From contig JAIPKD010000004.1 of NCBI GenBank assembly GCA_021733835.1, positions 1-64,000 of the forward strand: 64,000 nucleotides of DNA, written 5' to 3'. This DNA comes from Verrucomicrobiota bacterium. Lineage in GTDB: Bacteria; Verrucomicrobiota; Verrucomicrobiia; Limisphaerales; JAIPKD01. The notes below the pieces were generated by a model. That model worked only from the letters and a program-made list of their open reading frames with translations. It searched no databases and was not told where the DNA came from. Of the stretch, positions 8,354 through 43,663 are shown piece by piece. Both the position numbers and the translations under genes were made by a program. Numbering within the stretch: position 1 is the first letter of the stretch; each line of letters opens with the position of its first letter.

Positions 8354-10498
8354 TTAGTCCGCATCTTTTTCGGCATTCAGCATCTTATCGCGCTCGGCCA
8401 TAGCGGCTTTTCTGGAAAGGCGCACGCGGCCTTTATCGTCGACGCCGATACACTTGACCCAGATTTCGTCGCCATGTTTCACGATATCGTCGGTTTGTTT
8501 AACGCGGAAATTGGCGAGTTCGCTAATGTGACAGAGGCCGTCTTTGCCCGGCAGGACTTCGACAAAACAGCCGAAGTCTTTAATTGAGACCACTTTACCT
8601 CGATAGACCTTACCGACCTCGATTTCGGCGGCGACGGCTTCAATTTCATGGCGTGCTCTACCCATGCCTTCTTCGTTGACTGAATAGATATTAACGGTTC
8701 CGTCGTCTTCGATATTTATCTCGCAACCGGTTTCCTCGACGATACGCTTAATATTCTTACCGCCCGGGCCGATAAGCATACCAATTTTTTCGGGGTCTAT
8801 CTTGACCGTAAATATCCTCGGCGCGTACTTATTGAGTTCCGCGCGTGGCTCGGCGAGGGTCTGATTCATATTCTTGAGGATCAGCATCCTGCCTTGATGC
8901 GCCTTTTCGATTGCCTCGGTCATTATCGAAAGCGGCAGGCCGTCAAGTTTGAGGTCGAGCTGGAATCCTGTAATCCCGCGCTCAGTACCGGCGATCTTGC
9001 AATCCATATCGCAGAAGGCGTCTTCCCATCCGATGATATCGCTGAGCAATTTATAATTCGAAATACGTCCCTCCTGGTCTTGTTCGGTACATAGTCCGAT
9101 ACTGATGCCGGCGACTGGCCGGATCAGCGGCACGCCTGCGTCCATAAGCGCCAGGCTGCCGCTACAAACGGAGGCCATCGAGCTGGAGCCGTTTGATTCA
9201 AGGATTTCGCAAGTTATGCGGATGGCATAAGGAAAATCCTCCAGCGGCAGCATCGGTTCGATCGATCTTTCCGCCAATGCGCCGTGACCTATCTCTCTAC
9301 GCCCCGGGGGGCCTATCCTACCGGTTTCGCCGACCGAGAAGTTCGGGAAGTTATAATGTAGAATAAACTGTTTTTCGGTGACACCGCCCGTATAAGCGTC
9401 AAACTCCTGGGCGTCTTCAGTCGTCCCAAGCGTGGTCATGGCCGCGGCCTGCGTTTCACCGCGGGTGAACAGCGACGAACCGTGTGTCCTTGGAAACAAT
9501 CCTACTTCTGAATAGAGGGGACGAATATCATCGAAGCCGCGTCCATCCAGACGCTTGGATTCCGTCAGTATGCCACTACGAATCTTTTCCTTTTGAATCT
9601 TGCCGAACACCTCTGACACGACCTGATCGGTTGCAACGGTCTCGCCGAATTTTTCGACCAATTTCGGCGCCGTTTCTTCGAATAATTCCGAGCACGCCTT
9701 TTCGCGATCCTTTTTACCGTGGATAGCCAGGGCGCTGGAAAGTCTCTCATCCAACAGCGTCTTGGCCTCTTGCACCAGTTCTTCGGGGATGGAGGTTTGC
9801 GGCGCCGGGAGTTTCGGTTTACCGACCTTGTCCGCGAGTTCCTTTTGGATGGCTATCACCGGCTGGCAATATCCATGCGCGAGTTTGAGTGCGGTGTTGA
9901 AGTCTTCATCGGAAATCTCGCTAGCCGAGCCCTCGAACATGAGCATATCGTTTTCGGTACCGACATATATCATGTCCAGATCACTCTTGGCGCGCTCTTC
10001 GTGGGTGGGATTAACAACGAACTTTCCTTCGACCCTGCCGAGTCTGACAACGCCTATTGGGCCGTTCCATGGTACATTACTGACCATCAACGCCGCCGAG
10101 GCGCCGACCATACTCAATACATCCGGGTCATTGGCGCCGTCGGCGCTCAGAACTATGCTCTGCACCTGCACTTCGTTGATCCAGCCCTTGGGGAACAAGG
10201 GTCTCAACGGACGATCGGTCATTCTGCAGGTAAGAATCTCTTTCTCGGTGGGGCGCCCCTCTCTTTTGAAGTATCCGCCCGGGAATCTGCCTGCCGCGGC
10301 GGCCTTCTCCCGGTAATCGACCATCAATGGAAAGAAGTCCAAGCCGGGTCTCGGTTTTTCTGCGGCAATTACCGCCACCAATACGACGGTTTCACCGAGC
10401 CGTACGAGTACCGATCCATTTGCTTGTTTAGCTAACTTCCCTGTTTCTATCTGTAAAAATTCAGCGCCTATTTGCGCCTTTACTGTTGTAGGTGTCAT
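8354..10498 (-). CDS. pnp: polyribonucleotide nucleotidyltransferase
   Basis: Two RNase PH domains, KH (IGMLIGPGGKNIKRIVEETG) and S1 (GKVYRGKVVSIKDFGCFVEVLPGKDGLCHISEL). Confidence 0.97.
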   Translation of the reverse strand: MTPTTVKAQIGAEFLQIETGKLAKQANGSVLVRLGETVVLVAVIAAEKPRPGLDFFPLMVDYREKAAAAGRFPGGYFKREGRPTEKEILTCRMTDRPLRPLFPKGWINEVQVQSIVLSADGANDPDVLSMVGASAALMVSNVPWNGPIGVVRLGRVEGKFVVNPTHEERAKSDLDMIYVGTENDMLMFEGSASEISDEDFNTALKLAHGYCQPVIAIQKELADKVGKPKLPAPQTSIPEELVQEAKTLLDERLSSALAIHGKKDREKACSELFEETAPKLVEKFGETVATDQVVSEVFGKIQKEKIRSGILTESKRLDGRGFDDIRPLYSEVGLFPRTHGSSLFTRGETQAAAMTTLGTTEDAQEFDAYTGGVTEKQFILHYNFPNFSVGETGRIGPPGRREIGHGALAERSIEPMLPLEDFPYAIRITCEILESNGSSSMASVCSGSLALMDAGVPLIRPVAGISIGLCTEQDQEGRISNYKLLSDIIGWEDAFCDMDCKIAGTERGITGFQLDLKLDGLPLSIMTEAIEKAHQGRMLILKNMNQTLAEPRAELNKYAPRIFTVKIDPEKIGMLIGPGGKNIKRIVEETGCEINIEDDGTVNIYSVNEEGMGRARHEIEAVAAEIEVGKVYRGKVVSIKDFGCFVEVLPGKDGLCHISELANFRVKQTDDIVKHGDEIWVKCIGVDDKGRVRLSRKAAMAERDKMLNAEKDAD

Positions 10499-15274: not shown

Positions 15275-15443
15275 AACAGACCTCTCTTATTTAACGTGTT
15301 CTACATTATCCCGATAATCTTCATTCCGACGCAACTCGGCGTAAAACGCACCAATATTATGGCTATGGCACAGATTATGAGAAGCAAACAGTATGCCGAT
15401 TTGTTTATTGATCAACCTACGGCATTCGACTATACTAGCGTTA

Positions 15444-16946
15444 ATGGCACAGGGTTTATTCTTGGCACAAAAAATGGCGCTGGCGCAGACGCTTGCGCCG
15501 CAGCTACAGCAGTCGCTCATACTGCTCCAGGCCCCGACAATGGAGCTTAAGGCGCTTGTCGAGCAGGAACTGCAAATGAACCCCGTCCTCGAAGAAACCG
15601 TTGCCGCCGAAACACATGAAGAACAGACTCAAGACGACTCTATACGCGAAGTCGACCCGGCGGAGCCGCCGGCGGATGTCTCCTACGATCCCGCAACCGA
15701 CCGTGATAAAGGGCCGGCCGACGATTTCGAGGCCGAGTTCGAGCGCCTATCGCAAATGGATCAGGAATGGCGCGAACACTTCTCTCAAACAAACCTGCCG
15801 TTACGTCAAAAAGAGGAGGAAGACGAAAAACGCCAGTTCATGTTCGATTCCCTCGTTTCGACTACGTCACTACAGGAGCACTTAATTGAACAAATCCGCA
15901 TGTCGGAGATACCCGAAGAGAAATATCCGGTCGCTGAAATGATCGTCGGGAATATCGACGACAACGGTTACCTCCAGGCCTCCGTAAACGAACTCGCATT
16001 CTCCACAAACATAGCCGCCGAAGAAATCAGTTCCATCCTCGAAATCATTCAAACATTCCATCCGCCGGGTGTCGGCGCAAGAGACCTCCGCGAATGCCTG
16101 CTCCTGCAGCTGGAACGCCTCGAACGCAGTGATACCCTCGAATATATAATCGTTCGCGACTACATGCAGGCGCTGGGAAAACGCAAGTTCCCCGAAATCG
16201 CCAAGCAATTATCGTCAAGGAACGATTCGGAAGTCACCATCGAACAAGTGCAGGACGCCGCAAAACGAATTGTGACGCTCGAACCGCGTCCCGGCAGCGA
16301 GTTCCAGACGTCGGAGCCGCAATACATCGTGCCCGAGGTGTTCGTCGAGAAAAACGGCGACGAATACGAGGTGATTTACGATAACCAACACTTCCCCCAC
16401 CTGCGTATCAGCAATGCGTACAAAGACATTATGTCAAAATCCGACAGCTCCTCGGAGGTGAGAAATTACATCAGGGACAAGATACGCGCGGGCAAGTTTC
16501 TCATCAAAAGCATACATCAACGCCGCGACACCATCCTGAATATCGCCAGAGAAATCGTTCACCGCCAAAGAGAATTCCTCGACCACGGCATCTCACATCT
16601 CAAACCAATGACCATGCTCCAGGTCTCGGAAGTCGTCGGCGTCCACGAAACCACCGTCAGCCGCGCCGTCTCCGGTAAGTACATGCAAACGCCCCAAGGC
16701 ATATTCGAGATGAAGTTCTTCTTCACTTCGGGTATTAGGACACATGACGGCAATGACGTATCAAACGCGAGCATCAAGGATATGATAAACGAATTCGTCA
16801 GAAAAGAGGACAAATCCAAACCCCTTTCCGACGACGCAATCGTAAACCTCCTCGCCGAACAAGGCATCAAAATCGCGCGCAGAACCGTCGCCAAGTACCG
16901 AACCGAACTCAACATCCTCCCCTCGAACATGCGCAAGGTCTATTGA
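15444..16946 (+). CDS. rpoN: RNA polymerase sigma-54 factor
   Basis: N-terminal Q-rich activator region (LFLAQKMALAQTLAPQLQQSLILLQ) and C-terminal RpoN box ARRTVAKYRTELNI. Confidence 0.96.
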   Translation: MAQGLFLAQKMALAQTLAPQLQQSLILLQAPTMELKALVEQELQMNPVLEETVAAETHEEQTQDDSIREVDPAEPPADVSYDPATDRDKGPADDFEAEFERLSQMDQEWREHFSQTNLPLRQKEEEDEKRQFMFDSLVSTTSLQEHLIEQIRMSEIPEEKYPVAEMIVGNIDDNGYLQASVNELAFSTNIAAEEISSILEIIQTFHPPGVGARDLRECLLLQLERLERSDTLEYIIVRDYMQALGKRKFPEIAKQLSSRNDSEVTIEQVQDAAKRIVTLEPRPGSEFQTSEPQYIVPEVFVEKNGDEYEVIYDNQHFPHLRISNAYKDIMSKSDSSSEVRNYIRDKIRAGKFLIKSIHQRRDTILNIAREIVHRQREFLDHGISHLKPMTMLQVSEVVGVHETTVSRAVSGKYMQTPQGIFEMKFFFTSGIRTHDGNDVSNASIKDMINEFVRKEDKSKPLSDDAIVNLLAEQGIKIARRTVAKYRTELNILPSNMRKVY

Positions 16947-31516: not shown

Positions 31517-31858
31517 TTAATTACCTTGCTCTTTATCTTTCGCGCCCGGTACAACGGTCCCTGTTTGCCTTTCCTCCAATTCTTCTATTCTTCTCTTTAA
31601 ATCTCCGATCTCTTGTTCCCGCTCGGCATCCGCCGCCTTTGCCGAAAGATACGAATCTCGCTCCCACCAATCCACACCAAGTTCCTTTGCCTTATCAACC
31701 GACGCAATCATGAGACGGATTTTGATTGTCAGGAGCTCTATATCGGCTATTTGAATCTTTATATCTCCGGCAATAACAAGCCCTTTGTCTAGTACGCGCT
31801 CCAGAACATCGGCCAAGGTCGCGGACTGCAATGATTGAACATTACTTCGTTCTGTCAT
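31517..31858 (-). CDS. gas vesicle protein, GvpA-family minor subunit (GvpJ/S type)
   Basis: TLADVLERVLDKGLVIAGDIKIQIADIELLTIKIRLMIASVDKAKELGVDWWERD. Confidence 0.93.
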   Translation of the reverse strand: MTERSNVQSLQSATLADVLERVLDKGLVIAGDIKIQIADIELLTIKIRLMIASVDKAKELGVDWWERDSYLSAKAADAEREQEIGDLKRRIEELEERQTGTVVPGAKDKEQGN

Positions 31859-31888
31859 TTTCTTTTCCCTCTGTATATAGTTCCATAT

Positions 31889-32431
31889 TTATAGAAGATT
31901 TCCTAATGGCCCGAGGTCAACATTGAGATCTTCATCTTCAATCCCAAAAACCGCCTGGAGTTCTTGAAGTTTTTTACGCATAGCCTTCAGGCTAAGTCCA
32001 AGCTTCTGGATTTCAATGGCCGAGAGAGAACCTTTCTTGACCCTGCGATAGGCTTCTTTTTCCATCAGCTGCCTTATGAGCTCTATGAGCGTTAACACCA
32101 GTTTGGCAATCCCCTTCTCAGCGTTTTCTGGATCGGCTGCATCGATCAGCCGTGGAATATTCCTCTCGGCCTTTCTGATTTCGGCTTGGATTCTCTCTAT
32201 TTCACGTAATTCCTCCGGAGAAGCCTCTCTGTTTGGATCAGTATAACCACGGTGTCCCAGCTCCTCGGCTTTTGATATCGATGTAAGCATAATACGAAGC
32301 CCGGCATAGACCAGATCGACGTCGGCCAGGCGGATGGCAAGTTCGCCCTCTACCACGGCTCCCTTTTCCAGAATTTTATCAAGCGCCTCGACGAGGCTGA
32401 CATTATCAGTTTGCTGAAGTGATCTATTCAT
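31889..32431 (-). CDS. GvpJ/S - GvpK fusion protein
   Basis: N-term SLVEALDKILEKGAVVEGELAIRLADVDLVYAGLRIMLTSISKAEELG (GvpA family) followed in one ORF by NAEKGIAKLVLTLIELIRQLMEKEAYRRVKKGSLSAIEIQKLGLSL...EDLNVDLGPLGNLL (GvpK). Confidence 0.9.
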   Translation of the reverse strand: MNRSLQQTDNVSLVEALDKILEKGAVVEGELAIRLADVDLVYAGLRIMLTSISKAEELGHRGYTDPNREASPEELREIERIQAEIRKAERNIPRLIDAADPENAEKGIAKLVLTLIELIRQLMEKEAYRRVKKGSLSAIEIQKLGLSLKAMRKKLQELQAVFGIEDEDLNVDLGPLGNLL

Positions 32432-33248
32432 TAATATCCCCTAAAGCACTGAAGCTGAAAGGCGCGAGGGGACCGGCACATTCAAGGCTCAACCCCATAA
32501 TTCCGAGCTTTTCATTAAGTTCGCGGATAATATCCAGGAAGGCGTTCAGTTCGTTGTTCTCTACCAAGTATGCCGCATTGAAAACCATGGGTTCGGATCT
32601 GCCTACGATATGCTTATCGAGAACCTCCATGCGCCTCGAATCCGATGCGGCGTCTTCCATTCTTCGGAATATATCCTTGGATATGCGCTCAATTTCCCTA
32701 TCTCGTTCCCGGTCGATAACCTTCTTAAAATCCTGTTCCAGAAAAAACGCCAAACCCTCAGGCTGGTTTGCGATTTTCACCTTTTCAGCGGCGATCTCCG
32801 GATTATGCTCGCATATAACATCATCCAGCGTATCCCTATTAACAAGAAATGCCTTAACGCTTAATTCTTGCTTCCCTCGAAATTTTTCTAAGAGTCGACT
32901 CAAATTCCCGTAATTACGTGATAATATCTGTTCCAGATTGGCGGTACTTTTGAAAATCGTGCCGAAACTCATGGGAACCACACAAACATCACTGCTTCCT
33001 TTTTTAGTAGACTTCTGTATCACCTCGTGGTGTCGAAGGACTTTGCTCTTTATCCAATCCACATCCTCTTTTGCCTTCCTTTGTATCTCCTCAGTACCAA
33101 ATTCATTTTCGGACACCTCACTGATTACGGCTTCTAAACCGCGGAAAGGATAGGAAAAGACACCCTCGTTTTCATCAACACCAATAGCATCAATGGCTTC
33201 ATGGGCCTTGACAAGGTCGCGTATGCAATATAGGTAAATTAGATTCAT
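32424..33248 (-). CDS. gas vesicle protein GvpL/GvpF family
   Basis: YLYCIRDLVKAHEAIDAIG...VISEVSENEFG...VLRHHEVIQKS...VVPMSFGTIFKS...LSLECAGPLAPFSF. Confidence 0.93.
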   Translation of the reverse strand: MNLIYLYCIRDLVKAHEAIDAIGVDENEGVFSYPFRGLEAVISEVSENEFGTEEIQRKAKEDVDWIKSKVLRHHEVIQKSTKKGSSDVCVVPMSFGTIFKSTANLEQILSRNYGNLSRLLEKFRGKQELSVKAFLVNRDTLDDVICEHNPEIAAEKVKIANQPEGLAFFLEQDFKKVIDRERDREIERISKDIFRRMEDAASDSRRMEVLDKHIVGRSEPMVFNAAYLVENNELNAFLDIIRELNEKLGIMGLSLECAGPLAPFSFSALGDINE

Positions 33249-33319
33249 TTATTTTAACTGCACGAACACCCTCTGTCATTGTCATTTAAACGAAGAGTAT
33301 CGGCTGATTCAAAACCAAA

Positions 33320-35254
33320 TTATATACGGGAAGAACTATAAAGGAGACTGCCAAGACTTGCAAGCCGATCTTCGCCTACTAATCTTGAAGATTGATATAC
33401 AATTGTCTTTTCCACATCCGGAATTTTCTTATCGAATTCTTTCCTAACTACAAATTGATCCTCCATGACAGCACGACATGTAGGACAATTGCTTTCCGGG
33501 ATTACACGATTAAGGAAGAGTGCCGGAATATGAATACCCGTTCGTTTACAGGCATCGACCAGATCAACTATCTCTTCCAATGCCATGTCCGTTGGTATCG
33601 ATACTACGTAAAGGGAAGCTCTGTCCGCATCAGTTAAAATGGATCGTAGATTCTTGATTCTCTTGGAGATCGTCACCAAGAAATCAGAAACCTTTGGTAA
33701 GGAGAGCAGATTTTTGTATTTAAGCAGTAATCCAAATATGACCTTCAACCAATGCTCGACCAACTCGGGAAGTTCCAATAACCGGATTAAATGTCCCGTG
33801 GGCGCTGTATCCAGAACGAACTTATCGTATTCATTTTGTTCCATCAGCTCCACGATCCTGGAGAGTGCAATTACTTCATCCAGTCCCGGAGGAGAAAGAT
33901 CGAGAATATTCTCGATAACCTCCCTATCAAATTGCAAATCAACCTTCCCGCCGCCTGTCAGTGACCGGAAAAACTCCGCCACATCCTGTGCATAAATCTC
34001 TTTGAGCTGAGTAAACTCTGCGTGAGCGTTGAGTTCAATAGCCGTCAAACCAGGACGTACTTTAATCGGTTTCGCCCTAATGTGGGTATCTAAACAGTCC
34101 GACAACGAGTGAGCAGGGTCGGTCGAGAGTATCATCACTTCGCCTGCGCTGGATTCGTCGGCCAATCGTACTGCCGTAGCGCACGCGAGGGTCGTCTTTC
34201 CCACTCCCCCTTTTCCTCCAAAGAGCAACAATGACTGATGTCCACCCGGAAATGGCGCAGGATTATCAACTCTCTGTCGGGATACCTGACTTGTTTGTAT
34301 TGTATCTGAAATCTTTTCAGGCTTTCTTACCTGATCCCAAAAACTTGAGAGGCGTTTGGCGCCCTGAACCTGGGCCCCCATGAGCGGAACGCTCCATAAC
34401 GAGTAATCCGCAATATATTCGTCTGTAATACGCTTTAGGCAATCATACTGCTCTACGTATGCGTTATGACATACGGAACAGTTGTTGTCATCCAGGTATA
34501 CCCTGTTGATTATTATTTCACATACAGGGATTTCCATACGCTTCAGTGCGTCCACCAGATCTCTGGTCTCCGGTATACTCATCGGATCAGGTGCTGTCAC
34601 CGGCACAAAACGACATTCTTTGGAATTCTTCAGTTTTTTTTGCAAGTGCTCTATATTTGCGCTCAGTTCATCCAGGAATTCATCGGTCTGATCCTTACGG
34701 TAACTACCGCGAAAAAGCATTACCATATAACGGTGCTTTGCGAGCATAGCGTCGAGAGCTTTAACCCATTTTTCCATTATATCGGGAAGCTCCATGAATC
34801 GAAGCACATGCCCCGTCGGCGCACTGTCAACAACGATACATGAATAATCAGTAGTATCAACCAAGTGGGCAATTCGAGTAAATGCCATTACTTCGTCGAG
34901 TCCGGGCATTGAAAGTTCAAGCAACTGACTTATATCTTCGTTATCGAGGAAGGTACCCCTTTGCGCTATCTGCTGCAATTGCTTCTCATGCTTGGATTTA
35001 AATTCCATTAAACTAGCTGAAGCATCGAGTTCATCAAGTTCCAGGTTGCGAGGCAGTACGGAATTTGCGAAGCTGTCTTTCAATGAATGCGCCGGATCAA
35101 TGGAAACAACCAATATTTTTTCATCGGGGCGCTGGCATGCCAAGCTAAGTGAGGTAGCGGCGGCACAAGTGGTTTTACCGACTCCTCCCTTGCCGCCGAA
35201 AAGAATTAAGGATAAGTTCTTATCAAATAAAAAAGAAGGCAGTTGTCGCTCCAT
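33320..35254 (-). CDS. tandem ArsA/GET3-family ATPase
   Basis: Two P-loops (LILFGGKGGVGKTTCAAATSLSLA and LLLFGGKGGVGKTTLACATAVRLA), two GLDEV(M/I)A and VLDTAPTGHLIRLLELPE motifs, and a CxxC in each half (NCSVC, NCPTC). Confidence 0.94.
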   Translation of the reverse strand: MERQLPSFLFDKNLSLILFGGKGGVGKTTCAAATSLSLACQRPDEKILVVSIDPAHSLKDSFANSVLPRNLELDELDASASLMEFKSKHEKQLQQIAQRGTFLDNEDISQLLELSMPGLDEVMAFTRIAHLVDTTDYSCIVVDSAPTGHVLRFMELPDIMEKWVKALDAMLAKHRYMVMLFRGSYRKDQTDEFLDELSANIEHLQKKLKNSKECRFVPVTAPDPMSIPETRDLVDALKRMEIPVCEIIINRVYLDDNNCSVCHNAYVEQYDCLKRITDEYIADYSLWSVPLMGAQVQGAKRLSSFWDQVRKPEKISDTIQTSQVSRQRVDNPAPFPGGHQSLLLFGGKGGVGKTTLACATAVRLADESSAGEVMILSTDPAHSLSDCLDTHIRAKPIKVRPGLTAIELNAHAEFTQLKEIYAQDVAEFFRSLTGGGKVDLQFDREVIENILDLSPPGLDEVIALSRIVELMEQNEYDKFVLDTAPTGHLIRLLELPELVEHWLKVIFGLLLKYKNLLSLPKVSDFLVTISKRIKNLRSILTDADRASLYVVSIPTDMALEEIVDLVDACKRTGIHIPALFLNRVIPESNCPTCRAVMEDQFVVRKEFDKKIPDVEKTIVYQSSRLVGEDRLASLGSLLYSSSRI

Positions 35255-35312
35255 GTTTACACGTCCTCTTTTGATCCCATCGGTTGATATTTCTCGAAGA
35301 CTCCCTTTGAAT

Positions 35313-35543
35313 TCATTCTGAATTCTCTAATCTATCCAGATAATCCAACAGTTCCTTTTCATGTGCGTCAAATTCATCTTCGCTAATCTGGTCGGTTTCC
35401 AGCATCATGTAGAGTTCTCTTAGCTTCGTGTGGACGTCCTCAGTTTCTTGAACAGCTTCCTGTTTTACCGCATTGTGAATCTCGCGGAAGATAAAACACA
35501 GACTTTTAACGGGGAAAAGCAGTATGTCATCAATCAAAAGCAT
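35313..35543 (-). CDS. gvpG: gas vesicle protein GvpG
   Basis: MLLIDDILLFPVKSLCFIFREIHNAVKQEA...LRELYMMLETDQISEDEFDAHEKELLDYLDRLE; internal ATG at 35543 is the likely start. Confidence 0.92.
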   Translation of the reverse strand: MLLIDDILLFPVKSLCFIFREIHNAVKQEAVQETEDVHTKLRELYMMLETDQISEDEFDAHEKELLDYLDRLENSE

Positions 35544-35556
35544 AATCGTCAATCTA

Positions 35557-36345
35557 TCATTTTGGCCGCAATTCAATATCGACGAAATTATATGGAGGCC
35601 AGGGACCGTTATAATCAAACGCAAAATTATCGTCAAAAAGTTTCGCGGCCTCGAAGACCGCCTCTTCGAATCGGCTTTCTCCAGTCCGTTCTATTAAACA
35701 TGCCAACTTCATTACCTCATTTTCATCCTTTGTCACATTCTTTTTGATTTCAAAACAAACATTGCTCAGCACTTCAATGACCAGTTGTGTATATGTTGCC
35801 CGGTCTTTTTCAAGTAATTGTTCAAAACGTTGGCCTAGAGCAATCTTTTCGTCTCGCGTTGGTTCTCGGTCTTCGCGAAAAAGCCGATCTCTCAATTTTT
35901 CCAATTCCGGATGAACAGATACCAAGTATTGGAAAATATTCGGGACATCCCATTTTACCTTTAATCCCATTTCAATTTTCCCATCGACGCGTTGCAACTG
36001 TTTACAAAACGTATCCTCATTTGAAACCAGAAGCTTTCGCAAAGCTTCCAAGTCTTCCGCTACGACTCCGAATGATACGGGAAGCATCGTTAATTCGTCT
36101 CTCATTAATGCCTGAAGCGTTTGGTGATGTGCAGCAAGATGACGCCTCTCCGGGCGAAATTTGGTCTCACGCACATTACTCACCACCGCGGCAATGGACT
36201 CCTGAATTATGCAATAAACTTTACTGTCGTTTAAACCAATATCTCCATACCTGTTTGCTTCATTCTCCGGCCATGCATCATCTACCGATATTACCGCATA
36301 TAAATATCTTCCACTTAGGTTTTCTGCATTCTCGCTCATACTCAT
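35557..36345 (-). CDS. gas vesicle protein GvpF/GvpL family (second copy)
   Basis: GRYLYAVI...AAVVSNVRETKFRPERRHLAAHHQTLQALM...MLPVSFGVVAEDLEALRKLL...LCPYNF-like end (GPWPPYNFVDIEL). Confidence 0.94.
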   Translation of the reverse strand: MSMSENAENLSGRYLYAVISVDDAWPENEANRYGDIGLNDSKVYCIIQESIAAVVSNVRETKFRPERRHLAAHHQTLQALMRDELTMLPVSFGVVAEDLEALRKLLVSNEDTFCKQLQRVDGKIEMGLKVKWDVPNIFQYLVSVHPELEKLRDRLFREDREPTRDEKIALGQRFEQLLEKDRATYTQLVIEVLSNVCFEIKKNVTKDENEVMKLACLIERTGESRFEEAVFEAAKLFDDNFAFDYNGPWPPYNFVDIELRPK

Positions 36346-36481
36346 TATTATCTTTTGGGATTATTTGCAAACCTTAGAGACTCGTTTGCTTCCAACCATG
36401 TATTTTCCAACCCGGCCACGATCAAATTTTCAATTTGTATAAATCTCCATAGATGAATAAATAATCTAATTTATGTACTTT

Positions 36482-36811
36482 TTAATACTGAATTTTGAAC
36501 CCTGATTCACATGATTCCTGTTCCTGCTGTTTACACTTTCGGCCTGAGATCAAGTTATCAGTTTTCTTATGAGATTCCACCTCTTCCATTAATTTTCTCT
36601 GTTCTTCCTCAATTTCTGCAATCCTACTTTCAAGCTGCCATAAACGCTGCATGGCGTTTTCTTTTTCGATCTTTTGACGATACTTTTCCATTTCCAGCCA
36701 TGCAACACGCAAGAGAGCCTGGTGTGGTAATCGCACTTGTTCCGCTCTATCCGCATGAGTCTTAATCCCATTCAAGCCACGTATTTTTCTCTTAGAACTG
36801 TTCATTTTCAC
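36482..36811 (-). CDS. small coiled-coil gas vesicle accessory protein (possibly GvpV-like)
   Basis: RGLNGIKTHADRAEQVRLPHQALLRVAWLEMEKYRQKIEKENAMQRLWQLESRIAEIEEEQRKL; position between gvpN and gvpF/L. Confidence 0.5.
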   Translation of the reverse strand: MKMNSSKRKIRGLNGIKTHADRAEQVRLPHQALLRVAWLEMEKYRQKIEKENAMQRLWQLESRIAEIEEEQRKLMEEVESHKKTDNLISGRKCKQQEQESCESGFKIQY

Positions 36812-37805
36812 TCCTTTTATCCGAAAGTACTTTCTTCAAGTGACACTTCCAGGTTTTAACTGCGATATCTTCGATCAGCTTACCTGCAATTACTTCACCA
36901 TCCCGTGTAACTTTGGCCGTATCCTGGCCCAGCACATCTTTACAGATATATCTGAAATCACGATCTTCCCAGCATGGAGCTTTATCAAGCTTCTTCAATA
37001 CCTTAGCTATCATTATTCCCGCGCGGATGGTAGGCTGATGATTATTAACTCCAATCTGACGCATCCCTTTTATTATATCGACGATAACCTCAGCATAATC
37101 CATGTCGATTCCCGATCGAGCTTGCGTGATCTTGATCTCTGTTTCACGATCGTAATGCCCTAAATTAATCGTAATAAGCCTGTCCTTCAGGGCGTCCTGT
37201 GTTTTATGGACGCCGGCGTATTCTTCGGGATTCGATGTAAATATCGCCCTAAAACTGGGATTCACCCTCATGTAACCGTCCCCAATCGTCCTTAGCTTGG
37301 GCAAATTAAGAATCCCTTCCGAAAGGACAGAAAGCAGGACATTATTGGCTTCAGGGCGTGAACGACTGAACTCGTCGTAAATGAGCGTATCTCCCCTTTC
37401 ACATGCGGTGGTTAATCGATTATCCACCCAGAAGCTCCTTGTTTCCTCTTGGGTTTTTACAACCGAGTGTATAAAATTATCCACCAATCTTGATCTCCTA
37501 TGTCCCGCATTCTGTCCTATTAAATCAGAGGTCCCGAACTCCTCGTTTCCGTGAATAAGAGTAACTAAATTCCCGAGCTTTGCCGCAACGTGAAACGCCA
37601 ATGTTGTCTTTCCGGTACCTGCAGGACCCGAGAAATGCACAGGAAATCCTGACTTTAAATAAATTAGTGCGCGTTCGATTATTTCGTTTACCTGTTTTGT
37701 CAAAACAAACGCATCGCTTGGTTTCAATTCTACATTATCTCCTTCAGTCTTCACGCGCACTATCGAAGAGACACCCGCTAAACCATTTCCGTTTCCGCTT
37801 CCCAT
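36792..37805 (-). CDS. gvpN: gas vesicle protein GvpN (MoxR-type AAA ATPase)
   Basis: YLKSGFPVHFSGPAGTGKTTLAFHVA...TLIHGNEEFGTSDLIG...TLIYDEFSRSRPEANNVLLSVLSEGILNLP...FRAIFTSNPEEYAGVHKTQDAL. Confidence 0.97.
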   Translation of the reverse strand: MGSGNGNGLAGVSSIVRVKTEGDNVELKPSDAFVLTKQVNEIIERALIYLKSGFPVHFSGPAGTGKTTLAFHVAAKLGNLVTLIHGNEEFGTSDLIGQNAGHRRSRLVDNFIHSVVKTQEETRSFWVDNRLTTACERGDTLIYDEFSRSRPEANNVLLSVLSEGILNLPKLRTIGDGYMRVNPSFRAIFTSNPEEYAGVHKTQDALKDRLITINLGHYDRETEIKITQARSGIDMDYAEVIVDIIKGMRQIGVNNHQPTIRAGIMIAKVLKKLDKAPCWEDRDFRYICKDVLGQDTAKVTRDGEVIAGKLIEDIAVKTWKCHLKKVLSDKRSENEQF

Positions 37806-37898
37806 TTTGTTCTAAGCTCCTTATTGTATTCGAATTTACTGTTCGGTCTTCTCTCTCGTGCCTTATCGGCCGGGATGTACTAGTCTTCCAGTAAGCGA

Positions 37899-38807
37899 CT
37901 ATTGTTTCACCAGTTTCTTGGCGTATCCAATCCATTTACTTACATTCTCCTCGGAGGCTACGCTCATATCCGAAAGTTTTTCGCATAGTTCAGCGGTATT
38001 GGAAGTCGCTAACTGATTGTAAGTATAAATGCCGGCATCCTCATTGAGACGCTCCTGTGTTTTTGCCCCTATACCCTTTATAACGGTCAGATCATCCTGA
38101 AGAGTTTCCGCTTTCTCTTTTTTGGGTTTCACTCGTTCCGGAGTCTTCTTTTTTGTTGGTGTCCGCCTTCCCACGGCTGTATCTACAACACCCAAGAAAG
38201 CTGAACGCGCTGATTTCAAGTCCGATGCCACTTCTCCACAGATTTCTTCGACGCTCTTCGCAATGTTAGATATAAAGTCCGCCCGCTCTTTGGCTGCAGC
38301 TTCGCCCATTTCTTCTCTTGCATCGCGATATCCGTCGCATAAGTCCGTTACATAGGATTGTAGCTCAGACATGAATCCTTGAAGCTCGTTTCTTGTCTGT
38401 TCAGCCGTCTGCATATGATTGTCTCGAATCTGTTGCTGTAAGCGCCTGGTTTGAGTCGTTAATTCCTTAACCTTCTCATCCAGCCCCTTTATAAAAGCAG
38501 ATCGTTCCGATCTCCCGGATTCAGCGGCTTCAACAAGCTCATCCCTGAATCTATGGCACATATCCTTTGCTTCGGATTGAATCCGCCCGACTTGCCGGCG
38601 TAATCCGCGAATAAATTCCTCCCTATTTTTCTCTAAATATTCCCTTGTCTCCGCCCTACCCTTATTTGCTGATTCTACGATAAATCTTGCATTTTCCTTG
38701 ATTTGCTCGACATCATCGGCAAGCCTTACTCTTAATTCCGTCCTGTTTTCATGGAGTCCGCGAATCTCTTCCGACAACCGCAACATATCTTGTGCTAGAG
38801 TACCCAT
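37899..38807 (-). CDS. coiled-coil protein with C-terminal helix-hairpin-helix-like domain; candidate GvpC analogue
   Basis: Degenerate 36-40-aa repeats (REEFIRGLRRQV, RSAFIKGLDEKV, RADFISNIAKSV) and DDLTVIKGIGAKTQERLNEDAGIYTYNQLA; directly downstream of gvpA. Confidence 0.6.
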   Translation of the reverse strand: MGTLAQDMLRLSEEIRGLHENRTELRVRLADDVEQIKENARFIVESANKGRAETREYLEKNREEFIRGLRRQVGRIQSEAKDMCHRFRDELVEAAESGRSERSAFIKGLDEKVKELTTQTRRLQQQIRDNHMQTAEQTRNELQGFMSELQSYVTDLCDGYRDAREEMGEAAAKERADFISNIAKSVEEICGEVASDLKSARSAFLGVVDTAVGRRTPTKKKTPERVKPKKEKAETLQDDLTVIKGIGAKTQERLNEDAGIYTYNQLATSNTAELCEKLSDMSVASEENVSKWIGYAKKLVKQ

Positions 38808-38932: not shown

Positions 38933-39151
38933 TTATGCAGGTTGCGCCGCAGTGGCTGTCAACCCAACGGCTTCCGCATACTTAAGATACGTCTCGACGG
39001 AAGCGATTACGACACGGGCCTCCACAGAAAGCAATTCGATGCCTACTAATGAGACTTTAGCCCACGCATCAATGACAATACCCTTGTCAAGAATTCGGTC
39101 AACAACTTCTGCCAAGCTAGCGCTACTTGTTGTTTTTTGTACTTCAGCCAT
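38933..39151 (-). CDS. gvpA: major gas vesicle structural protein
   Basis: [53 protein letters not shown], canonical GvpA. Confidence 0.98.
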
Positions 39152-39238
39152 AATTAATCTTTTTTTATTTAGTTCCTGTTTACTTACGTTTCAGTGGTTA
39201 TGAACCAATGTACTATAACCACCCGACACGGAACTTTG

Positions 39239-39254
39239 AGCAATAAGGATGCCA
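39239..39254 (-). promoter_or_regulatory. sigma54 -24/-12 promoter of gvpA
   Basis: Minus strand TGGCATCCTTATTGCT; GG and GC separated by exactly 10 bp, about 90 bp upstream of the gvpA ATG. Confidence 0.88.
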
Positions 39255-39364
39255 CATCTTACCAACTGCAGGACTTATTGGTGTAAGTCGCTCTTTATCA
39301 CAATGTTATGCTGATTATATATTTGTCCTGTAACCCTAATTATTGCTGATTATCCATTTAACAC

Positions 39365-39403
39365 TATGGAATTCATTCCATACACTATGGAATTCATTCC
39401 ATA
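39365..39403. promoter_or_regulatory. two tandem palindromic activator sites (putative UAS)
   Basis: TATGGAAT-TC-ATTCCATA at 39365-39382 and 39386-39403, starts 21 bp apart, about 110 bp upstream of the -24 element. Confidence 0.75.
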
Positions 39404-39529: not shown

Positions 39530-41680
39530 TTATGTATTCGAATCGTGTCTTTGGAGGTATTTATTATCCCCGACTGCTTTAATCGCCCTTTCAATGTGGC
39601 GCGGTTCTATTTGCAGCCTTTTCGGACCTCTGTCTTTAATGTTCACGATCAATTCACGGATCGCGTCTATTGCGGATTCGTTACAGACTGCATGTATTTC
39701 GGCGCCGGAAAAACCTTCGGTGCTTTCAGCCAGACTGAGGATATCCACATCTTCGCAAATGGGCTTTGGTTTCAGCCAAATCTCGAATATTCTCCTTCGA
39801 CTTTCGATATCCGGCAAAGGAATCTCCAACACCATATCGAAACGCCCTGGTCGTAAAAGAGCTGTATCAAGCAAATCGGGACGGTTCGTAGCGCCGAGCA
39901 CAAAAACTCCTTCCAACAACTCGATACCATCCAGCTCGGTCAAAAACTGACTGATGACACGTTCAATCACCCTAGAGTCCGAACCGCCGCATCCACGACC
40001 GGGCACCAAGGCATCGATCTCATCAAAAAAAACAATACATGGAGCAGCCTGTTTGGCTTTTCTGAATAGATCTCTGACCGCTTTTTCAGATTCGCCGACG
40101 TACTTGGATAGCAAAGACGGGCCTTTAACGGAGATAAAGTTCACTTCGGTTTTCTTAGCCAGCGCCTTCGCCAGCAGCGTTTTGCCACATCCGGGTGGAC
40201 CCGACAGTAAAATACCTTTTGGTGGTGTTACGGCCGCTTCTTTAAAAAGTGCGGGGAATTCTATCGGCCACTCGACACATTCCAAAAGCCGTTGTTTGAT
40301 CTCACTCAGGCCACCCACCTGCGTCCAATCCACCTCCGGCACTTCAGTGAATACTTCACGAATGGCCGAGGGTTCGACTTCCCTTAACGCCTCAACAAAG
40401 TCGGCCATATGAACCCGTAGATGTGAAAGCGTTTCGTAAGGTATCTCTGCAAGTTCAAAATTGATATCCGTCATGATATGCCTCAGACAGATCATGGCGG
40501 CTTCTCTACATAATGCCTCAAGGTCCGCTCCGACGAATCCATGGGTTATGGATGCCACACGTTCAATGTCAACGTCATCATCGAGCGGCATGCCGCGTGT
40601 GTGTCTCACCAATATTTCTTTTCTGCTTTCCCTGTCGGGAATTGGAATGACAATTTCACGATCGAAACGCCCCGGTCGTCGAAGGGCCGGATCGATTGCA
40701 TTGGGAATATTCGTCGCTGCAATTACAATCACCTGCTGGCGTTTGGCCAATCCGTCCATAAGCGCCAGCAGCTGGGCCACGACGCGTTTTTCCACATCAC
40801 CTACTACCTTTTCGCGATGCGGAGCAATTGCATCGATTTCATCAATAAAAATAATACTGGGTGCCTTTTCGGCCGCCTTCTTGAAGAAACTTCGCAGGTG
40901 AGCCTCACTCTCGCCATAAAACTTGTGTATTACCTCGGGGCCGTTGATAGAGAAAAAAGTGGCCTCTGTCTCATGCGCTACGGCCCTGGCAAGCAACGTC
41001 TTACCACATCCGGGCGGCCCTATCATTAAAACGCCTTTTGGTGGGTCAATGCCCAAACGTTCGAAAACTCGCGGATAACAAAGCGGCAGTTCGATTATTT
41101 CACGAATCCTTAGAATCTCACGCCCCAACCCCCCGATATCCTCATAACAAACGGTTTGCTTGGTCTCCGCCTCACCTACCTTGCCTATGCGAAGTTTAGT
41201 GGTGGGATTAATTACCGCCGGACATTTATTACCGACCTCGACTACTTTAAAATCCGCCGAGCGGGTACCGAATAACGTCACGCGAACACGGTCTCCGACC
41301 ATAACCGGTAATCCGTCCAATAGACCGCCGATATATTTTAAGTCTCGCTCAGAAGGACTGATAGTAATCGGGGAAAGCACTACCAGACTTGCGGGATTCG
41401 CTTCCGCCTTACGTACCTGAACATGCTGATCGAGTGCCGTACCGGCATTGTCCCGTGAGATTCCATCTATTTGCAAACAAGACCGACCGCGCACCTCTTT
41501 ATATGCCGGCATGGCCTTGCAGACGGTTTTCCTTTTGCCCAAGACCTCGATGATATCGCCTATATTCACGCCCAGGGCTTCTATATCGGAAGGGTCCAGT
41601 CGCGCAAACGCTCTTCCAACGTCCTTACCGAGGGCTTCGGAAACCTTGAGTTTGAGCACCTTTTCTTCCGTAGCGATCAT
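39530..41680 (-). CDS. CDC48/VCP-like double AAA ATPase
   Basis: N-domain plus two AAA modules ([60 protein letters not shown]). Confidence 0.95.
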
Positions 41681-41691
41681 TTCATCCGATG

Positions 41692-42219
41692 TTATTTACT
41701 CAACTTCACTTCCATAATCCCATTACGGCATGAATAAGTCATCTGATCCATTGAGAAACTTGCTGGAAGCAACACTTCTTTCCGATATTTCTTCTGACCT
41801 TTCGCCGCGGACAATGTCAAAATGTCGCCATGCAGTTTCAAATCAACATCTTGTTCACCTATCCCCGGCATCTCGGCAACGACCAACACGTATTTACCTT
41901 CATCAAACACGTCAACCAAAGGTTCGGTTATTTCACTGACGACCGTTTCCCCGGTGTTTTCGTCTTCATGCACATTACCGAAAGGTTCTATATTGACATC
42001 TTGCTTTCCAAGGCCGGTTTTCACGCGAAAACCATACACACCTCGCACTTTACCTTGTGACCCTTGAAATTCGCCGGTTTTTTTCAATTCCTCTCCTTTT
42101 TCTGCGAGATCTCCGAGCTTCTCGAGCAAATTACTCAGCCCGTCCAGAAATCCCTTGGCTCCGGAGGGTGTTTCTTTCCGGCTGTCTTTCTCTTTATTCT
42201 CTTCACTATCATCATTCAT
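41692..42219 (-). CDS. Hsp20/GvpH-like protein
   Basis: EPLVDVFDEGKYVLVVAEMPGIGEQDVDLKLHGDILTLSAAKGQKKYRKEVLLP...NGIMEVKLSK with acidic/GvpH-like N-terminus. Confidence 0.85.
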   Translation of the reverse strand: MNDDSEENKEKDSRKETPSGAKGFLDGLSNLLEKLGDLAEKGEELKKTGEFQGSQGKVRGVYGFRVKTGLGKQDVNIEPFGNVHEDENTGETVVSEITEPLVDVFDEGKYVLVVAEMPGIGEQDVDLKLHGDILTLSAAKGQKKYRKEVLLPASFSMDQMTYSCRNGIMEVKLSK

Positions 42220-43663
42220 TTGTATTCCTCCCGTTTTTTATTTGCTCAATTGAAATTATGTATCTTTTGACCTTTGAATGAACTGTTTTGTAATCGGTCT
42301 CCAATATCCTTGCTGCTTCAGCCATGTTCCCACGTGTTTTTTTTAATGCATGTACAAGAGCCTTCTTCTCAATCTGTTCAATCGCGCCCTTTTTTAACTC
42401 GCTAAGCGAGTTCTCTCCGATAACCCGAATTCCAAAACTCGCGTCCAATGTCTTTACAGGTTCGGATTCACGTGAAATATCCAAGTCATTTTCTTCGATG
42501 ACATTGTTATCACATCTTAAAACCGCTCGGCGTATAACATTACGTAATTCACGAATATTGCCCGGCCACTCATGTGACATTAAGATTTCCTGTGCCTTAT
42601 CGGATATCCCCTTTATATCTTTATTTAGTTCAAATCTACATTGATCTGTAAACCTTTTTGCAAGGAACCTAATGTCCTCACGGCGTTGCCGCAAGGGGGG
42701 CACGTCTATCTCAAATTCGCTCAGCCGATAGTATAAATCGCGTCGAAATTCCCTGTTTCTTACCATTGCAGATAGACTGCGATTGGTGGCGACAATAATC
42801 CGAATATCCACACTTATCGGCTTGTTGCCTCCTACTCTGACAACAGTTTTTTCTTGAAGCGTTCGGAGGAGTTTAGGCTGCACCTCTGAAGGTAGATTCG
42901 ATATCTCGTCAAGAAAAAGCGTTCCATCCGAGGCGGCCTCAAATTTACCGGGATGCCGAGAAGTAGCCCCCGTAAACGCGCCTTTCTCGTGACCGAACAA
43001 TTCGCTTTCAAGGAGTGTCGGCGCAATTGATCCACAGTCTACCGGAATGAATAAACCATTCTTCCGCTGGCTCCTCTCATGAATCGCACGAGCCACAACT
43101 TCTTTACCCGTACCGGTCTCACCGCTAATGATGACTGTGTAATCCGTCGGCGCCACAAGTTCCACTTGTGAGGTAATCTCGCGCATCGTCAAGCTAATGC
43201 CCAGATGCTCCCATGGCTTACATTGGTCTTCTGCAGAATGATAAACATCATCACATTGCGGCTTTCCTTTCCGGACAGCCCTGTTTATCACATCTCGTAG
43301 TTTTTCGCTATCAAACGGCTTACATAAGAAGTCAAAAGCCCCTAGTTTCATCGATTCAACAGCCGTCTCAATAGTCCCAAATCCGGAAATGACAATTACC
43401 GGTATATCGGAATCGATTTTTTTAACCTCCTTGAGAACTTCCATCCCCCCAATATCGGGCATTATCAAATCGAGAAAAATGAAATCTATGGTTTCAGCGT
43501 CACGCAATGTCATCAAGGCCTGTTCTCCACTACAGGCCTCAATTGATGCCATTCCAACGTTTTCTACGAAAGCACATAGAGTCTTCCTTACGCTATCATC
43601 ATCGTCCACGATCAGCACTCGGGCGGGAGACATACTGTCAGCGGTTGAACGCATAACCAACAA
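42212..43663 (-). CDS. NtrC-family sigma54-dependent response regulator
   Basis: Receiver (VLIVDDDDSVRKTL...FIFLDLIMPDIGGMEVL), AAA+ (ISGETGTGKEVVARAIHERS, SELFGHEKGAFTGAT), Fis-type C-terminus (TRGNMAEAARILETDYKTVHSKVKRY). Confidence 0.96.
   Translation of the reverse strand: MLVMRSTADSMSPARVLIVDDDDSVRKTLCAFVENVGMASIEACSGEQALMTLRDAETIDFIFLDLIMPDIGGMEVLKEVKKIDSDIPVIVISGFGTIETAVESMKLGAFDFLCKPFDSEKLRDVINRAVRKGKPQCDDVYHSAEDQCKPWEHLGISLTMREITSQVELVAPTDYTVIISGETGTGKEVVARAIHERSQRKNGLFIPVDCGSIAPTLLESELFGHEKGAFTGATSRHPGKFEAASDGTLFLDEISNLPSEVQPKLLRTLQEKTVVRVGGNKPISVDIRIIVATNRSLSAMVRNREFRRDLYYRLSEFEIDVPPLRQRREDIRFLAKRFTDQCRFELNKDIKGISDKAQEILMSHEWPGNIRELRNVIRRAVLRCDNNVIEENDLDISRESEPVKTLDASFGIRVIGENSLSELKKGAIEQIEKKALVHALKKTRGNMAEAARILETDYKTVHSKVKRYIISIEQIKNGRNTNE

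What the first reader, a model, noticed from the sequence alone, without database searches (positions are those of the whole stretch)
39239..39403. Textbook sigma54 enhancer architecture upstream of gvpA: -24/-12 promoter plus two palindromes phased by 21 bp
Seen: minus strand TGGCATCCTTATTGCT (GG-N10-GC), and about 110 bp further upstream two identical perfect dyads TATGGAAT-TC-ATTCCATA with starts 21 bp apart, i.e. about two helical turns. Established: NtrC-family activators bind tandem helical-phase dyads 100-200 bp upstream of sigma54 promoters. An NtrC-type regulator (42212-43663) sits in the same locus and rpoN lies at 15.4 kb. Inference: the regulator binds these dyads and gives all-or-none phosphorelay control of flotation.
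Basis: partly seen in the sequence, partly recalled or inferred. Interest (0 to 1): 0.82.

Follow-up and report, generated by a model that had tools for sequence, protein, structure and literature searches.

The report
Conserved sigma54 enhancer controls gas vesicles
The DNA switch in front of this bacterium's gas-vesicle genes is real: its pair of DNA landing sites recurs ahead of gas-vesicle genes in several other bacterial phyla, and in this genome the only other such pair sits ahead of a gene for a giant secreted protein, which hints that floating and cell-surface make-up are switched on together.

Summary
Upstream of gvpA (minus strand) lie a strong -24/-12 element (39254-39239) and, 110 bp further up, two identical dyads TATGGAAT-N2-ATTCCATA, 21 bp apart. 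The whole genome holds only one other such pair (contig C35, 22 bp apart). It also lies upstream of a near-identical -24/-12 (15/16 bases), before a truncated gene for a secreted beta-helix/FG-GAP/Ig-like protein of at least 3036 aa. A second gas-vesicle genome of another family (G079) repeats this: its second dyad and sigma54 promoter precede a giant Ig-repeat protein. The consensus TAkGGAAT-N2-ATTCCmTA also occurs upstream of gvpA in 19 of 44 non-cyanobacterial loci from several phyla, against 0 of 32 cyanobacterial loci and 2 of 995 control tiles. Second sites cluster at 19-24 bp. The linked regulator (42212-43663) is complete and shares a recognition-helix signature, DYKT, with nearly all gvp-linked regulators; the other EBPs aligned from this genome lack it. 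Sigma54 plus GvrA control of gvpA1 is already proposed in Serratia. What appears new is the cross-phylum enhancer box and the extra target. Not shown: binding, transcription start, phosphorylation. The cluster lacks the histidine kinase found in relatives, so the phosphorelay part is unsupported.

The parts
39239..39254 (-). sigma54 -24/-12 promoter of the gvpA operon, TGGCATCCTTATTGCT
   Evidence: sequence; zero mismatches to TGGCAYNNNNNTTGCW; equivalent elements at gvpA in relatives
39365..39382 (-). enhancer dyad 1 (promoter-proximal), TATGGAATGAATTCCATA on the minus strand
   Evidence: cross-phylum consensus
39386..39403 (-). enhancer dyad 2, identical, 21 bp further upstream
   Evidence: tandem spacing of 19-24 bp in other genomes
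38936..39151 (-). gvpA, main gas vesicle protein; first gene downstream of the promoter
   Evidence: PF00741; NF006874 GvpA above cut-off
31517..38807 (-). rest of the putative gvpA operon: coiled-coil protein, gvpN-type AAA protein, 109-aa protein, gvpF, gvpG, ArsA-like ATPase, gvpL/F, fused gas-vesicle/GvpK protein, gvpA-like gene
   Evidence: Pfam; homologues in gvp clusters of relatives. That they form one operon is inferred
42212..43663 (-). GvrA-like sigma54 activator: receiver, AAA+ with GAFTGA, HTH_8; proposed binder of the dyads
   Evidence: syntenic orthologues in other gvp clusters
41692..42219 (-). gvpH (Hsp20-like), conserved next to the regulator
   Evidence: PF05455; synteny
39530..41680 (-). 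CDC48-type AAA ATPase, third gene of the conserved regulator block; its end lies 127 bp upstream of dyad 2
   Evidence: TIGR01243 above cut-off; synteny
15393..16946 (+). rpoN (sigma54)
   Evidence: PF00309, PF04963, PF04552

Best explanation
The region 39239-39403 is the enhancer-dependent sigma54 promoter of the gvpA operon. SHOWN (sequence): the -24/-12 element; two dyads about two helical turns apart and about 110 bp upstream; a complete rpoN; a complete sigma54 activator in the conserved gvrA-gvpH-cdc48 block; one other dyad pair in the genome, also ahead of a sigma54 promoter; the same box upstream of gvpA in several phyla. INFERRED: dimers of the linked GvrA-like regulator bind the two dyads on the same face of the helix, assemble an ATPase ring through their AAA+ domains, loop the DNA and open RNA polymerase-sigma54 at the -24/-12, starting transcription near 39228. 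The regulator is probably switched on by phosphorylation of its receiver by an unlinked kinase or small phosphodonor. The same regulator is predicted to activate the giant secreted-protein gene on contig C35, so that flotation and a cell-surface or aggregation protein are expressed together.
For: Dyads and promoter confirmed. Only one other dyad pair in the genome, also with an exact -24/-12 downstream, although sequence outside these elements is unrelated. In 294 genomes of the order the exact consensus occurs only in two gvp-bearing genomes, at gvpA and at C35. Upstream of gvpA, 19 of 44 non-cyanobacterial loci carry the box within 2 mismatches, against 0 of 32 cyanobacteria, 2 of 995 control tiles and 0.05 in Markov sequences. 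-24/-12 elements within 180 bp of gvpA: 33 of 44 against 0 of 32. Of 28 promoters examined, 13 have a second site (score at least 9) within 40 bp, 12 of them at 19-24 bp; elsewhere in the same upstream regions 1 of 13776 positions scores as high. Regulator synteny. DYKT recognition helix shared with gvp-linked regulators and absent from the eight other EBPs of this genome that were aligned. In Serratia sp. ATCC 39006 gvpA1 needs GvrA and has a sigma54 site (PMC4982088); an rpoN mutant makes no gas vesicles (PMC11778176).
Against: No binding, transcription-start or expression data. The genome has about ten other EBPs, any of which could in principle bind the dyads. The window regulator sits on a long branch and does not group firmly with the gvp-linked clade. 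Some loci with a DYKT regulator have no recognisable box upstream of gvpA (L048, L059). No kinase in the cluster and no clear GvrB orthologue in the genome. The C35 gene runs off its contig, so its full product is unknown.
Confidence: 0.83

Rival explanations
1. The promoter is sigma54-dependent, but the dyads are bound by a different sigma54 activator of this genome, and the linked regulator acts elsewhere.
For: Eleven EBPs with strong AAA+ matches are present in the genome, and enhancer-binding proteins need not be linked to their targets.
Against: The same box recurs upstream of gvpA in several phyla in clusters that carry the same regulator-gvpH-cdc48 block. The DYKT recognition helix is specific to this set and absent from the other EBPs aligned from the genome.
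Confidence: 0.1
2. The dyads are operators for a non-sigma54 factor, a repressor or a global regulator, that happens to lie upstream of a sigma54 promoter.
For: In Serratia, gvpA1 is also controlled by other factors such as SmaR (PMC4982088). Dyads alone do not identify the protein family.
Against: Position well upstream of the -24/-12 and tandem phasing near two helical turns are typical of sigma54 activators, and box and -24/-12 occur together in most loci. Cyanobacterial gvpA upstreams have neither element.
Confidence: 0.05
3. The tandem palindromes act as RNA or DNA structure, as a terminator of the upstream cdc48 gene or a mobile repeat.
For: As single-stranded RNA the two dyads fold into one nested hairpin (-20.4 kcal/mol, z -5.5), and they lie 127 bp past the end of the cdc48 ORF.
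Against: No T-tract and no terminator-like site. The repeat occurs at only two places in the genome, both upstream of sigma54 promoters. Boxes elsewhere are imperfect palindromes at conserved relative positions.
Confidence: 0.02

Closest known systems
GvrA/sigma54 control of gvpA1 in Serratia sp. ATCC 39006 (PMC4982088, PMC11778176)
   Same: NtrC-family activator encoded in the gas vesicle locus next to gvpH; consensus sigma54 site upstream of gvpA1; gas vesicles need GvrA and RpoN.
   Different: In Serratia gvrA heads its own operon with gvrB and gvrC; here no gvrB/gvrC-like genes are in the cluster. No enhancer box was described in the passages I read. A second target encoding a giant secreted protein is not described there.
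Classical NtrC/glnA-type enhancer promoters
   Same: -24/-12 promoter, tandem dyads about two helical turns apart upstream, receiver-AAA+-HTH activator.
   Different: Different dyad sequence; the regulator is below the NtrC family cut-off; target is the gvp operon.
PrsK/PrsR-RpoN control of PEP-CTERM surface proteins (PMC9850573)
   Same: A sigma54 activator controlling surface or floc-forming proteins, similar in spirit to the second target here.
   Different: Regulator is below the PEP_resp_reg cut-off (394 against 502.6). No PEP-CTERM signal could be tested because both giant genes are cut by contig ends.

Membership tests
sigma54 enhancer-dependent promoter | GG-N10-GC -24/-12 element matching the consensus | tested here: met
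   TGGCATCCTTATTGCT, zero mismatches
sigma54 enhancer-dependent promoter | upstream activator dyads in helical phase | tested here: met
   two dyads 21 bp apart, 110 bp upstream of the -24/-12; 19-24 bp spacing conserved in others
sigma54 enhancer-dependent promoter | intact rpoN and an activator with GAFTGA and DNA-binding domain | tested here: met
sigma54 enhancer-dependent promoter | transcription start about 12 bp past the -12 and dependence on the activator | not testable with these tools
   needs 5' RACE and mutants
GvrA gas vesicle regulators | sigma54 activator linked to gvpH and the gvp cluster | tested here: met
GvrA gas vesicle regulators | shared recognition helix (DYKT) of gvp-linked regulators | tested here: met
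GvrA gas vesicle regulators | groups with gvp-linked regulators in a tree | tested here: inconclusive
   window regulator is on a long branch near the base, fork unsupported
GvrA gas vesicle regulators | gvrB/gvrC-type genes in the locus | tested here: not met
   none in the window cluster; a kinase and a receiver protein are present in relatives
GvrA gas vesicle regulators | direct similarity to Serratia GvrA | not tested
   Serratia sequence not held
NtrC (NR-I) | above the NCBIfam ntrC cut-off | tested here: not met
   394.6 against 558.6
PrsR (PEP-CTERM response regulator) | above the TIGR02915 cut-off | tested here: not met
   394.2 against 502.6

The most novel reading that the evidence does not exclude
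A single sigma54 activator with a box conserved across phyla (TAkGGAAT-N2-ATTCCmTA) runs a small flotation regulon that couples gas vesicles to a giant secreted adhesin-like protein, so that cells make buoyancy and a sticky or aggregating surface together. In one genome the gvpA promoter was visibly copied in front of the giant gene.
Probability: 0.55. Interest if true: 0.7.

Novelty: new variant of a known kind. Interest (0 to 1): 0.58.

Why it matters
It turns a proposed GvrA-sigma54 model, known from one enterobacterium, into a testable cis-element with a defined sequence and spacing that recurs in gas-vesicle clusters of several phyla, and it gives a way to find co-regulated genes. The apparent co-control of a giant secreted protein links flotation to surface or aggregation behaviour, which bears on what floating bacteria do at their destination. 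The box could also serve as an inducible enhancer for engineered gas vesicles.

Tried and rejected
Recent duplication of the promoter region to explain the C35 copy: rejected for this genome, because flanks outside the elements align no better than shuffles; in G079, by contrast, the second promoter is a clear copy of the gvpA promoter. Terminator or attenuator: no T-tract and no terminator hit. Sigma70 promoter: hits near chance (4 against a mean of 2.2). Widespread repeat: rejected. Lone box-like sites in other genomes (L037, L139, L140, L141, L142, L146, L155) lie near unrelated genes without a convincing dyad plus -24/-12 arrangement and are treated as chance. A GvrB-like kinase in this genome: best match 27% identity, mainly over the kinase core, so not accepted as an orthologue. 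PEP-CTERM/PrsR system: regulator below the family cut-off. Literature searches for a described GvrA binding site found none, but only open-licence papers are held.

Full report
OBSERVATION. On the minus strand, 5' to 3', come the end of a CDC48-type ATPase gene (ORF 39530-41680), two dyads TATGGAAT-GA-ATTCCATA (39403-39386 and 39382-39365), 110 bp of DNA, TGGCATCCTTATTGCT (39254-39239) and gvpA (ATG at 39151). The dyad arms are perfect; the 2-bp centre is not. Chance expectation for the 18-mer with up to 3 mismatches in the window is 0.03. The -24/-12 matches TGGCAYNNNNNTTGCW exactly; this strict pattern occurs 7 times in the 2.84-Mb genome (3 times reversed), so alone it is only modest evidence.

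WHOLE GENOME. There is exactly one further pair: C35:9381-9398 and 9403-9420 (TATGGAATTGATTCCATA on the plus strand, 22 bp apart), followed after 73 bp by TGGCATCATTATTGCT, which differs from the gvpA element at one base. Outside these elements the two promoter regions align no better than shuffles (masked score 19 against a mean of 19.6). The gene behind the C35 promoter begins at 9109 and runs off the contig after 3036 codons. It has a signal-peptide-like start (my reading) and Beta_helix, FG-GAP, He_PIG and other Ig-like or Rib domains, a composition typical of giant secreted or adhesin-like proteins.

RELATIVES IN THE SAME ORDER. Of 294 sampled genomes (322 in a second, fuller search), 8 have a gas-vesicle match and 5 besides this one have a close GvpA (82-86% identity). 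All five have a GG-N10-GC upstream of gvpA, and four have a dyad of the same form further up: CAGGGAGCCAATTCCCTA, TAGGGAATCGCTTCCCTA, TAGGGAACGAATTCCCTA and TAGGGAATTGATTCCCTA; in the fifth only about 420 bp of upstream sequence is held. The exact consensus TAKGGAATNNATTCCMTA occurs among the 294 genomes only in this genome (four sites) and in G191 upstream of gvpA. In a 394-genome sample of the phylum it adds two isolated sites near unrelated genes, consistent with chance. In the four relatives with long enough contigs the regulator-gvpH-cdc48 block lies upstream of gvpA. In G079 a second dyad and -24/-12 lies just past the gvp cluster and precedes another giant Ig-repeat protein (at least 2387 aa, also cut by the contig end). 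There the second promoter is plainly a copy of the gvpA promoter (alignment score 102 against a shuffle maximum of 25).

OTHER PHYLA. A scan of named genomes with GvpA gave 80 loci. The consensus, defined beforehand from the order, was tested in the 600 bp upstream of gvpA. Within 2 mismatches it was found in 19 of 44 non-cyanobacterial loci, among them Desulfobacterota-type, Lentisphaerota, gamma- and betaproteobacterial and acidobacterial loci. It was found in 0 of 32 cyanobacterial loci, in 2 of 995 other tiles of the same non-cyanobacterial loci, and in a mean of 0.05 Markov sets. -24/-12 elements within 180 bp of gvpA were found in 33 of 44 against 0 of 32. A matrix from these sites (partly circular, so used only for spacing) finds a second site scoring at least 9 within 40 bp of the best one in 13 of 28 promoters; 12 of the 13 are at 19-24 bp, while elsewhere in these regions 1 of 13776 positions scores as high. 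Tandem placement about two helical turns apart is therefore a conserved property, not a quirk of this window. Whole-genome searches of 23 named gvp genomes return mostly the gvp sites and, in one, a second gvp-type locus next to a GvrB-like kinase.

REGULATOR. The window's regulator has receiver, AAA+ and HTH_8 domains and a GAFTGA loop. Its recognition helix contains DYKT, as do nearly all gvp-linked activators, while the other EBPs aligned from this genome lack it; gvp-linked L081 lacks it (DPKT) and has no box. Eleven EBPs with strong AAA+ matches exist in the genome. The tree leaves the window regulator on a long branch near the base, so orthology rests on synteny and the helix rather than on tree support. 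It is below the NCBIfam cut-offs for NtrC, AtoC and PrsR.

MECHANISM AND WHAT IS KNOWN. In Serratia sp. ATCC 39006, gvpA1 depends on GvrA and has a sigma54 site (PMC4982088); an rpoN mutant makes no vesicles, and GvrA is proposed to open the sigma54 complex (PMC11778176). What I did not find described in the papers available is the enhancer box itself, its recurrence across phyla, and the second, giant-protein target. The phosphorelay step is not supported beyond the receiver domain: relatives have a PAS-PAS histidine kinase (two of them examined) and, in G079, a stand-alone receiver between the regulator block and gvpA; this cluster has neither, and no clear orthologue of the kinase was found.

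LIMITS. All evidence is from sequence. The consensus was chosen by eye from the order before the cross-phylum test. The named-genome list is the best 80 GvpA matches, not a random sample, and related loci are not independent. Both giant genes are incomplete.

Noticed in passing
window 31889-32431: One 180-aa ORF holds both a Gas_vesicle (GvpA/J-like) domain and a GvpK domain; similar fused-looking ORFs occur in order relatives L030-L033 and L035, while L029 has a separate GvpK.
   Followed up: partly
window 39309-39324 and 39344-39359: A 16-nt direct repeat (TGCTGATTATATATTT / TGCTGATTATCCATTT), 35 bp apart, lies between the dyads and the -24/-12; possibly a site for a DNA-bending protein.
   Followed up: no
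L030 10390-12256: Relatives carry a PAS-PAS histidine kinase (L030, L032) and, in L030, a stand-alone receiver protein between the regulator block and gvpA; both are missing from the window cluster.
   Followed up: partly
L030 12600-12660 and 19184-19245: In G079 the promoter and leader of gvpA appear duplicated in front of a giant Ig-repeat gene, including a conserved TTCCA-GTGTTC-TGGAA stretch in the leader.
   Followed up: partly
L043, L049, L057, L061 upstream of gvpA: These mostly deltaproteobacterial loci have TGGCAY-N5-TTGA or TTGG in place of TTGC at the -12, a possible variant sigma54 element.
   Followed up: no
window 37899-38807: The gene between gvpA and gvpN encodes a 302-aa coiled-coil protein with a weak C-terminal HHH/DUF4332-like match.
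   Followed up: no
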